Source of the DNA: Haladaptatus sp. DJG-WS-42
GTDB taxonomy: Archaea; Halobacteriota; Halobacteria; Halobacteriales; Halococcaceae
Direction: 5' to 3'
Assembly (NCBI RefSeq): GCF_037198285.1
Contig: NZ_CP147243.1
Span: 248,001-312,000, forward strand
Length of the DNA stretch: 64,000 nucleotides
The position numbers and the translations under genes were made by a program. Below the pieces are notes generated by a model. That model searched no databases and had not been told where the DNA came from. It worked only from the letters and a program-made list of their open reading frames with translations. The stretch's first letter is position 1. Every line of letters begins with the position of its first letter. Positions 51,866-52,504 of this stretch are shown here, piece by piece.

Positions 51866-51943
51866 ATGGTCGTCACCACCCGTGACCTGCGGCCGGTGTT
51901 GCCTGCTCACCAGCAGTCGCCACGCCGTACGTGTTGTTGCTGA
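51866..51943 (+). CDS. Putative cysteine-ended leader peptide of cysE (25 aa)
   Basis: An ATG opens a 25-codon frame, MVVTTRDLRPVL...RRTCCC, whose last three sense codons are TGT TGT TGC, then TGA at 51941-51943. The cysE start is 51 nt further on. These Cys codons and the stop can pair with the cysE initiation region: GTTG (51933-51936) and GCTGAAC (51939-51945) with GTTCAGCCAAC (51997-52007), leaving two bulged T. A hairpin CTGCT/AGCAG (51903-51916) lies inside the frame. In mycobacteria, polycysteine leader peptides attenuate sulfur genes; an archaeal case is not known to me. No clear TATA box is seen. Stalling and control are inference. Confidence 0.6.
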   Translation: MVVTTRDLRPVLPAHQQSPRRTCCC

Positions 51944-51994
51944 ACGACTCATTTCTACTCGCGTCGCAGCCGACCACTCTCACCCACTCAATCA

Positions 51995-52504
51995 ATGTTC
52001 AGCCAACTTTCCGAAGACATTCACACCGCAATCGAAAACGACCCGGCCGCAAAGAGCACCGCAGAGGCGCTTACCTACCCCGGCGTCCACGCACTCCTGT
52101 TTCACCGCCTCGCCCACGCGCTGCACACCCGCGGCTTTCGCGTGACCGCCCGCATCATTTCGCAGTTCGCCCGCTTTCTCACCGGCATCGAAATCCATCC
52201 CGGCGCGACAATCGGGCGACGACTGTTCATCGACCACGGCATGGGCGTCGTCATCGGTGAAACCGCAATCATCGGCGACGACGTGGTCATGTTCCACGGC
52301 GTGACGCTCGGCGGCACGTCATCGAATCCGAAAAAGCGCCACCCGACCATCGGGAACAACGTATTGCTCGGCGCGAACGCGACGTTGCTTGGCCCCATCG
52401 AAGTCGGTGACGGCGCGCAGGTCGGCGCTGGTGGCGTCGTTCTCACTGACGTGGCCCCAGACACCACCGTCGTTGGTGTTCCCGCCGAGCCCGTAGAGGA
52501 CTAG
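51995..52504 (+). CDS. cysE: Serine O-acetyltransferase
   Basis: A 169-residue short-form CysE. The N-terminal helical part (1 to about 60; YPGVHALLFHRLAHALHTRG) leads to left-handed beta-helix hexapeptides (GIEIHPGATIGRRLFIDHGMGVVIGETAIIGDDVVMFHGVTLGG), containing the catalytic His in DHGMG. It makes O-acetylserine from serine and acetyl-CoA, the first step of cysteine synthesis. The gene follows a putative Cys-ended leader peptide, which suggests end-product control. Sulfur-relay genes elsewhere in the window are unlinked. A hairpin plus T-run overlaps its stop. Confidence 0.93.
   Translation: MFSQLSEDIHTAIENDPAAKSTAEALTYPGVHALLFHRLAHALHTRGFRVTARIISQFARFLTGIEIHPGATIGRRLFIDHGMGVVIGETAIIGDDVVMFHGVTLGGTSSNPKKRHPTIGNNVLLGANATLLGPIEVGDGAQVGAGGVVLTDVAPDTTVVGVPAEPVED

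What the first reader, a model, noticed from the sequence alone, without database searches (positions are those of the whole stretch)
51866..52007. Cysteine-ended leader peptide that can hide the cysE start codon
A 25-codon frame ending TGT TGT TGC TGA lies 51 nt before cysE, the gatekeeper gene of cysteine synthesis. The Cys codons and stop (51933-51946) can form a 12-pair helix, with one two-base bulge and one G-T wobble, with 51996-52007. That stretch covers the second and third bases of the cysE ATG and codons 2-4. Model: when Cys-tRNA is short the ribosome stalls on the Cys codons, keeps the upstream arm occupied and frees the cysE start; when cysteine is plentiful the helix forms after termination. 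Polycysteine leaders are known from mycobacteria; I know of no archaeal case.
Basis: partly seen in the sequence, partly recalled or inferred. Interest (0 to 1): 0.93.

Follow-up and report, generated by a model that had tools for sequence, protein, structure and literature searches.

The report
Archaeal cysteine-sensing leader before cysE
In this haloarchaeon and in about half of the relatives checked, the gene that starts cysteine synthesis is preceded by a tiny reading frame that carries a cluster of cysteine codons, which likely lets ribosomes sense cysteine shortage and would then keep the gene on; such control is known in bacteria, and our searches found no report of it in archaea.

Summary
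By a fixed rule (ATG frame, two or more Cys within four residues from codon 17 on), 78 of 155 haloarchaeal cysE loci have one (shuffles: mean 1.8, max 6); with a TATA-like box about 30 nt before the leader ATG, 62 of 155 (shuffles: mean 0.07, max 1). The rule finds 0 of 28 cysK-type and 1 of 28 trpS loci. The box lies before the leader, not before cysE (68/86 against 0/86 in an extended, partly hand-picked set; the window's own box is imperfect), so the leader is probably translated from a leaderless mRNA. Outside the Cys box the peptide is weakly constrained (pN/pS 0.82). What is conserved: a helix whose 3' arm is the Cys box and, in leaders that stop right after it, a U-rich tract just downstream (21 of 29 clusters; shuffled 1.5). 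A parallel Phe-box leader precedes pheS. Best reading: a cysteine-tRNA-sensing attenuator in archaea. Translation, stalling, sign and output step are untested.

The parts
51835..51840 (+). TATA-like box TTCAAA, 31-26 nt before the leader ATG (TTTAAA in congener L005)
   Evidence: Sequence. In an extended set of 86 leaders 68 have an all-A/T 5-mer at -38..-22 of the leader ATG; this locus and congener L006 are among the 18 without, L005 has it; 0 of the same 86 have one before cysE
51866..51943 (+). leader ORF, 25 codons, MVVTTRDLRPVLPAHQQSPRRTCCC*, predicted leaderless
51932..51943 (+). Cys box TGT TGT TGC and stop TGA
   Evidence: 78 of 155 cysE loci by a fixed rule of two Cys in four residues from codon 17 on; 86 of 155 in an extended set of which 22 were picked by hand
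51910..51916 (+). CCAGCAG, candidate 5' arm of the helix inside the leader (CCAGCAG/CTGCTGG in L005)
   Evidence: class-level test leader x Cys box z 4.75 over 47 clusters; weak at this very locus
   Evidence: present here and in L005, reduced in L006
51952..51956 (+). U-rich tract (TTTCT), 8 nt after the stop
   Evidence: U-rich pyrimidine motif within 32 nt after the last Cys codon in 21 of 29 layout-A clusters, shuffled 1.5 (max 5), 0 of 18 layout-B clusters
   Evidence: not supported as a pairing beyond two congeners
51995..52504 (+). cysE, serine O-acetyltransferase, 169 aa
   Evidence: TIGR01172 above cut-off

Best explanation
A 25-codon reading frame ending Cys-Cys-Cys-stop precedes cysE; it is predicted to be translated from a leaderless mRNA and to act as a cysteine sensor, in which a ribosome short of Cys-tRNA would stall on the Cys codons and keep cysE on, whereas a ribosome that finishes and leaves would likely let transcription end at the U-rich tract just behind the stop. 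Shown from sequence: the frame, its recurrence in half of the haloarchaeal cysE loci examined, the Cys box as its kept part, a TATA-like box placed for the leader and not for cysE in most of these loci, the stop directly behind the box with a U-rich tract next to it in one layout (A, this locus), and in a second layout (B, 30 of 86) a frame that runs on and stops inside cysE. Inferred: translation of the leader, stalling on Cys codons, the sign (starvation turns cysE on), and the output step. For layout A I commit to premature termination at the U-tract, prevented by a stalled ribosome close behind the polymerase; masking of the cysE start by the Cys box may add to it in this genus. For layout B translational coupling is the likely link. 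My estimates: Cys-sensing leader that controls cysE 0.85; termination at the U-tract as main output in layout A 0.45; start masking as main output at this locus 0.3.
For: Recurrence far above chance: Cys-Cys leaders in 64 of 155 cysE loci (50 shuffles: mean 0.66, max 4; reverse strand 0); fixed rule 78 of 155 (30 shuffles: mean 1.80, max 6), with TATA-like box 62 of 155 (mean 0.07, max 1). Gene specificity by the same rule: cysK-type 0 of 28, pheS 0 of 21, hisG 0 of 22, trpS 1 of 28. Promoter box at the leader: 68 of 86, before cysE in the same loci 0 of 86; in 69 loci without leader 20 have it before cysE; background 16 of 516. In layout A the stop comes 0-3 codons after the last Cys in 51 of 56. 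Body weakly constrained, pN/pS 0.82. UGU over UGC in the box (156:70) against 111:110 in cysE. U-rich tract in 21 of 29 layout-A clusters against 1.5 shuffled, 0 of 18 layout-B clusters, 2 of 69 non-leader loci. Leader x Cys-box helix z 4.75. Parallel case: Phe-box leaders (mostly GFGFFF-like) before pheS in 11 of 21 loci. [quoted passage not shown] RNA polymerase subunits and ribosomal proteins co-purify in Hfx. volcanii, where 72% of transcripts are leaderless (PMC8576121, passages).
Against: No expression, start-site or ribosome data for this organism. The window's own TATA-like box is imperfect (TTCAAA), and congener L006 lacks a clear one; only L005 of the three passes the box test. No general hairpin-plus-U terminator: 15 of 56 against 11.2 shuffled (max 17). 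The U-tract motif was defined after looking at these sequences, and its shuffles were mononucleotide. Arg meets the fixed rule nearly as often as Cys (73, and 48 with box; no shuffle control); Arg pairs are 65 against 27 in shuffles, so part of the frames' make-up is not about Cys. Layout B (30 of 86) has no U-tract, and simple coupling there would give the wrong sign. The Phe leaders before pheS show no U-rich tract. 69 of 155 loci have no leader in the extended set, among them all 15 from other genera of the same family. Loci are not independent, so class counts overstate the number of events.
Confidence: 0.6

Rival explanations
1. One reading: after a ribosome finishes the leader, the Cys box and stop would pair with the cysE start and block its translation; a ribosome stalled on the Cys codons would keep the start free. 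No termination is involved.
For: Helix present with 12 pairs, 11 of them in the MFE; a ribosome-sized block centred from 3 nt before to 6 nt behind the first Cys codon lowers the predicted opening cost of the cysE start by about 2.0-2.7 kcal/mol in all three congeners; pairing in the top 2.6% and 0.7% of swapped pairs in two congeners. Without control for relatedness Cys box x cysE start in layout A had z -4.12. It is the mechanism I recall for mycobacterial polycysteine leaders.
Against: With one locus per cluster the signal goes (z 1.36, p 0.10 in A; 0.54, p 0.29 overall), like the negative control; 4 of 29 loci in the top 5%. Third congener at 41%. In L001 blocks at c1-36 and c1+18 lower the cost almost as much (2.2 and 2.0). 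In layout A the stretch from box to cysE is less structured than its shuffles (mean z +0.68) and cysE starts in C/A-rich, G-poor RNA. Effect of blocking the box over layout A: mean 1.1, median about 0.2 kcal/mol; layout B: mean -0.6, median about 0.
Confidence: 0.25
2. Translational coupling: leader ribosomes would end near or inside cysE and reinitiate there, so the leader simply feeds ribosomes to cysE.
For: Layout B: all 30 leaders stop at +1 to +20 inside cysE, SD-like 4-mer before cysE in 21 of 30; ATGA/TGATG overlaps couple translation in Hfx. volcanii (PMC6728339, abstract).
Against: Does not explain the Cys box. Does not fit this locus: a 51-nt gap and no SD-like 4-mer (0 of 56 in layout A); little or no coupling beyond 30 nt (PMC12548453, passage). 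Gives the wrong sign for feedback unless stalling also raises leader initiation.
Confidence: 0.1
3. A functional Cys-rich microprotein (metal or redox sensor) that happens to be encoded beside cysE.
For: Cys-rich tails; 43 of 282 Hfx. volcanii microproteins have two C(P)XCG motifs (PMC10716476, abstract start in a search listing).
Against: pN/pS 0.82 in the body, close to the other frames (1.19, 0.88); apart from the Cys box little is kept; length and tail vary (layout B runs into cysE in other frames).
Confidence: 0.05
4. Chance frame without function.
For: GC-rich DNA has many open frames; 69 of 155 loci lack a leader in the extended set.
Against: 78 of 155 against 1.8 expected, 62 against 0.07 with promoter box; gene-specific among five gene types.
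Confidence: 0.02

Closest known systems
Mycobacterial polycysteine leaderless short ORFs (Canestrari et al. 2020; PMC4633059 for the first cases)
   Same: Leaderless short ORF with a Cys cluster at its C-terminus directly before cysteine-metabolic genes; proposed cysteine-responsive ribosome pausing (PMC4633059 passages; PMC9031893 passage; the 2020 paper itself is not held)
   Different: Archaeon; before cysE (the first mycobacterial case is before cysA2); archaeal promoter box; no SD-like 4-mer before cysE in this layout; a U-rich tract behind the stop; a second layout overlapping cysE; no sequence relation shown
Bacterial amino-acid leader-peptide attenuators (trp, his, pheST, ilv type; recalled)
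   Same: Short leader ORF with control codons for the amino acid that the operon makes or charges; Phe-box leader before pheS in the same archaea
   Different: No general bacterial-type terminator hairpin; U-tract; predicted leaderless leader; archaeal transcription machinery
uORFs in long 5' UTRs of Haloferax volcanii (PMC4983044, Table 2)
   Same: Mapped starts before short ORFs, including a 26-aa ORF before pheS and a 23-aa ORF before a tryptophan--tRNA ligase gene
   Different: Section 12 reports them as small proteins or uORFs, with no control-codon or attenuation reading; cysE is not in the table

Membership tests
Amino-acid leader-peptide attenuator (works like) | Short recurring ORF before the gene with a cluster of codons for the pathway's amino acid | tested here: met
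Amino-acid leader-peptide attenuator (works like) | Leader transcribed with the gene from a promoter before the leader | tested here: met
   by motif only and for the class: 68/86 before leader, 0/86 before cysE; this locus has an imperfect box
Amino-acid leader-peptide attenuator (works like) | Alternative RNA structures switched by ribosome position | tested here: inconclusive
   leader x Cys-box helix supported (z 4.75), Cys-box x cysE-start helix not; U-tract conserved
Amino-acid leader-peptide attenuator (works like) | Bacterial-type intrinsic terminator (GC hairpin then U run) | tested here: not met
   15 of 56 against 11.2 shuffled; none found at this locus
Amino-acid leader-peptide attenuator (works like) | Expression rises when the amino acid or its charged tRNA is short | not testable with these tools
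   needs experiment
Mycobacterial polycysteine leaderless sORFs | Leaderless start and C-terminal Cys run | tested here: met
   start by promoter motif only; Cys box
Mycobacterial polycysteine leaderless sORFs | Stalled ribosome frees a sequestered ribosome-binding site of the next gene (recalled) | tested here: inconclusive
   no SD-like 4-mer in 56 of 56 layout-A loci; start-masking helix not general
Riboswitch, T-box or other known RNA family | Match to an Rfam model | tested here: not met
   51600-52100: one match up to E 5, 13.5 bits against 163 needed, minus strand
Termination-reinitiation coupling (layout B kind) | Upstream stop overlapping or within about 30 nt of the downstream start | tested here: not met
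   gap of 51 nt at this locus; overlap in 30 other loci

The most novel reading that the evidence does not exclude
Haloarchaea run their own ribosome-mediated attenuation: leaderless leader ORFs with control codons (Cys before cysE, Phe before pheS) sense charged tRNA, and in the cysE type a U-tract placed behind the Cys box turns a stalled ribosome into read-through by archaeal RNA polymerase, without a bacterial-type terminator or Shine-Dalgarno; the same sensor is wired in two ways in different families.
Probability: 0.45. Interest if true: 0.93.

Novelty: new variant of a known kind. Interest (0 to 1): 0.86.

Why it matters
Amino-acid leader-peptide attenuation is a textbook bacterial mechanism. 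Its presence in archaea, with an archaeal transcription and termination machinery and leaderless initiation, would suggest that the logic arose more than once or is older than thought, and would give a first handle on how haloarchaea sense cysteine. It is directly testable in genetically tractable haloarchaea, and would make transcription-translation coupling in archaea testable in vivo. It also predicts a findable class of leaders (Phe before pheS already seen).

Tried and rejected
Hairpin-plus-U terminators behind the leader stop: clear in a few loci (GAGCG-like stem then U in L116, L119, L129, L115, L127, L128, L134, L179) but not above shuffles overall (15 of 56 against a mean of 11.2, max 17). 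RNAalifold per group of 3-16 sequences: of six layout-A groups two had z below -3.5 (-6.0, -3.53), of two layout-B groups one (-4.0), and the folds differ (column shuffles only). MFE z-scores: nothing general in layout A, mean -1.12 for ATG..box in layout B. Start masking as a class mechanism: first looked strong (z -4.12), removed by the relatedness control. Cys leaders before cysK-type genes, Trp before trpS, His before hisG: none by the tail rule (28, 29 and 23 usable loci); most of those cysK-type genes score below the family's cut-off (3 of 31 genomes above it). By the fixed rule hisG had Phe frames in 3 of 22 loci, none with a box. CysE loci outside the order: 0 of 15 with a Cys leader, whereas three new in-order loci had one. 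The genome-contig scan gave 80 loci of other organisms, no help. Rfam: nothing. Other TGYTGYTGYTGA sites in the genome: not leaders (L242 inside a longer ORF). Sampling limits: one search found CysE in 285 of 392 genomes, but only the best-scoring places were printed and I took 155 loci (30, 25, 100), so a more distant CysE subfamily is hardly sampled. The 22 loci added to the 64 Cys-Cys leaders were picked by hand from 30 candidates (8 dropped); 8 of the 86 do not meet the fixed rule, and no locus meets the rule that is not among the 86.

Full report
WHAT IS THERE. The leader ORF 51866-51943 and its Cys box lie exactly as described. The gene behind it is cysE by NCBIfam (TIGR01172, above its cut-off); it is the only place in the genome above that cut-off. 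The upstream gene, an acyl-CoA dehydrogenase-like ORF, ends at 51635, so 230 nt lie between it and the leader.

CONSERVATION. I collected 155 haloarchaeal cysE loci and oriented them by tblastn (155 of 155 found). 64 of 155 have an ATG frame within 250 nt upstream with Cys-Cys 12-32 codons behind its ATG (18-25 in fact); dinucleotide shuffles give a mean of 0.66 (max 4 in 50 shuffles), the reverse complement gives 0. Other residue pairs are far less enriched (WW 1, FF 1, HH 5 against 1.2, DD 15 against 3.2, RR 65 against 27). With a fixed rule (two or more Cys within four residues starting at codon 17-27) the count is 78 of 155 (30 shuffles: mean 1.80, max 6) and, with an all-A/T 5-mer at -38..-22 of the leader ATG, 62 of 155 (mean 0.07, max 1). 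By the same rule Arg counts 73 (48 with box), without a shuffle control there; Arg codons flank the Cys box. Applied to other genes in haloarchaea the Cys rule finds 0 of 28 cysK-type, 0 of 21 pheS, 0 of 22 hisG and 1 of 28 trpS loci. Distribution is patchy: all three held members of the own genus have the leader, the 15 loci from other genera of the same family have none, and loci of other families (f4, f6, f7, f12) have it.

PROMOTER. In an extended set of 86 leaders (64 plus 22 chosen by hand) an all-A/T 5-mer lies 38-22 nt before the leader ATG in 68, before cysE in the same loci in 0, against 16 of 516 shifted windows; in the 69 loci without leader 20 have it before cysE itself. The column profile shows T at -30..-28 (0.64-0.72) and A at -10 (0.65), as expected for a start at or next to the leader ATG; haloarchaeal TATA box, BRE and -10 element are described in PMC4983044 (passages). 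In the own genus only L005 (TTTAAA) passes the test; the window has TTCAAA at the same place, and L006 no clear box. So in most loci the leader is probably the first thing translated on the mRNA, and cysE shows no promoter box of its own.

WHAT IS SELECTED. Over 73 related pairs (56 loci) the leader body has pN/pS 0.82, the two other frames 1.19 and 0.88: little constraint on the peptide. The Cys box is what is kept (the extended set requires at least one box Cys by construction). This argues for control codons, not for a microprotein. Box Cys codons favour TGT (156 TGT, 70 TGC) while cysE has 111 and 110.

TWO LAYOUTS. Layout A (56 loci, this one): stop 0-3 codons after the last Cys in 51 of 56, then 23-87 nt to cysE; cysE starts in G-poor, C/A-rich RNA with no SD-like 4-mer (0 of 56). 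Layout B (30 loci): the frame stays open and stops at +1, +4, +8, +17 or +20 inside cysE in 30 of 30; SD-like 4-mers in 21 of 30, in 12 of 69 non-leader loci. SD motifs in 5' UTRs are reported as non-functional for initiation in Hfx. volcanii (PMC8576121, passage), so their role in layout B is open. Layout A has a U-rich pyrimidine tract just behind the Cys box: 21 of 29 clusters (one locus each), 1.5 in mononucleotide shuffles (max 5), 0 of 18 layout-B clusters, 0.4 of 29 in the 32 nt before cysE, 2 of 69 in non-leader loci (per locus, with a slightly different motif and a 40-nt reach, 30 of 56 against 2.2 shuffled and 0 of 30 in B). The motif was chosen after seeing these sequences. At this locus it is TTTCT, 51952-51956.

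RNA STRUCTURE. I tested pairing by comparing matched segments with partner-swapped ones, one locus per CysE cluster at 88% identity (47 clusters). The leader's upstream part pairs with the Cys box better than swapped partners (z 4.75, no permutation of 400 as good in the median run; A 2.12, p 0.02; B 3.78). Examples: CACCGGCCAC/GTGGCCGGTG (L231), ACACCGCTC/GAGCGGTGT (L228), GCGACAGCAC/GTGCTGTCGC (L161), CGACAGCC/GGCTGTCG (L167). The Cys box against the cysE start gives z 1.36 (p 0.10) in A and 0.54 overall, no more than the control inside cysE (1.49, 1.47). An earlier test without relatedness control had given z -4.12 (energies, so negative is better), and with coarser clusters -0.8 to -1.6. 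A classical hairpin terminator is not general.

PARALLEL CASE. pheS in the own genome has MAPEPTPVLTGDDSRLTPGFGFFRF*, 104 nt before pheS; 11 of 21 pheS loci have such a Phe-box leader by the fixed rule (7 with the A/T box), 0 a Cys one. A published start-site map of Hfx. volcanii lists a 26-aa uORF in the pheS 5' UTR and a 23-aa one before a tryptophan--tRNA ligase gene (PMC4983044, section 12 and Table 2); cysE is not in that table. I found no Trp leader at trpS (0 of 29 usable loci) and no His leader at hisG (0 of 23). The Phe leaders show no U-rich tract behind the stop.

HOW IT LIKELY WORKS. The arrangement fits a sensor of charged Cys-tRNA. For layout A the conserved companion of the Cys box is a U-rich tract, mostly within 20 nt behind it. 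[quoted passage not shown] RNA polymerase co-purifies with ribosomal proteins in Hfx. volcanii (PMC8576121, passages). I infer that a ribosome held on the Cys codons sits close behind the polymerase at the U-tract and lets it pass, whereas a ribosome released at the stop leaves it to terminate. The spacing argument rests on recalled bacterial coupling distances. Start masking may add to this in the own genus. Layout B is likely coupled by termination-reinitiation, known in Hfx. volcanii (PMC6728339, abstract); its sign under starvation is unexplained.

NOVELTY. Cys-cluster leaderless uORFs before cysteine genes are known from mycobacteria (PMC4633059, passages; PMC9031893, passage; the 2020 functional paper is not held). 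My searches for archaeal leader-peptide attenuation listed no paper on it. Limits: I judged most listed papers by title and abstract start; some lists were cut (20 of 21, 8 of 16, 10 of 152); the library holds open-licence PMC papers only; and two Hfx. volcanii small-protein and ribosome-profiling papers were not held.

Noticed in passing
L297:740-817 (own genome, before pheS; also L281, L282, L287, L289-L296): Phe-box leader ORF (MAPEPTPVLTGDDSRLTPGFGFFRF*) 104 nt before pheS; 11 of 21 pheS loci by the fixed rule, 12 of 21 by the script.
   Followed up: partly
L278-L298, within about 60 nt before pheS: A stretch GGAACCGNTA lies before pheS in 15 of 21 loci by eye, with or without a Phe leader; perhaps a second promoter or a control site.
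   Followed up: no
L007, L008, L010, L011, L033, L121, L125, L168, L176, L205, L231 and others (layout B): Leader frame passes the Cys box and stops at +1 to +20 inside cysE, often with an SD-like 4-mer before cysE; the expected sign of regulation under cysteine starvation is unclear.
   Followed up: partly
L116, L119, L129, L115, L127, L128, L134, behind the leader stop: Short hairpin with a GAGC/GCTC stem starting at the stop codon and followed by a U-rich run, like a small intrinsic terminator, in a few loci only.
   Followed up: partly
L009, L012, L014-L032 and other loci without leader: Where no leader is found, 20 of 69 loci have the TATA-like box directly before cysE, as if the leader had been lost or replaced by a leaderless cysE mRNA.
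   Followed up: partly
PMC4983044 Table 2: Hfx. volcanii has a mapped 23-aa uORF before a tryptophan--tRNA ligase gene (HVO_A0127); its sequence, and whether it holds Trp codons, was not available here.
   Followed up: no
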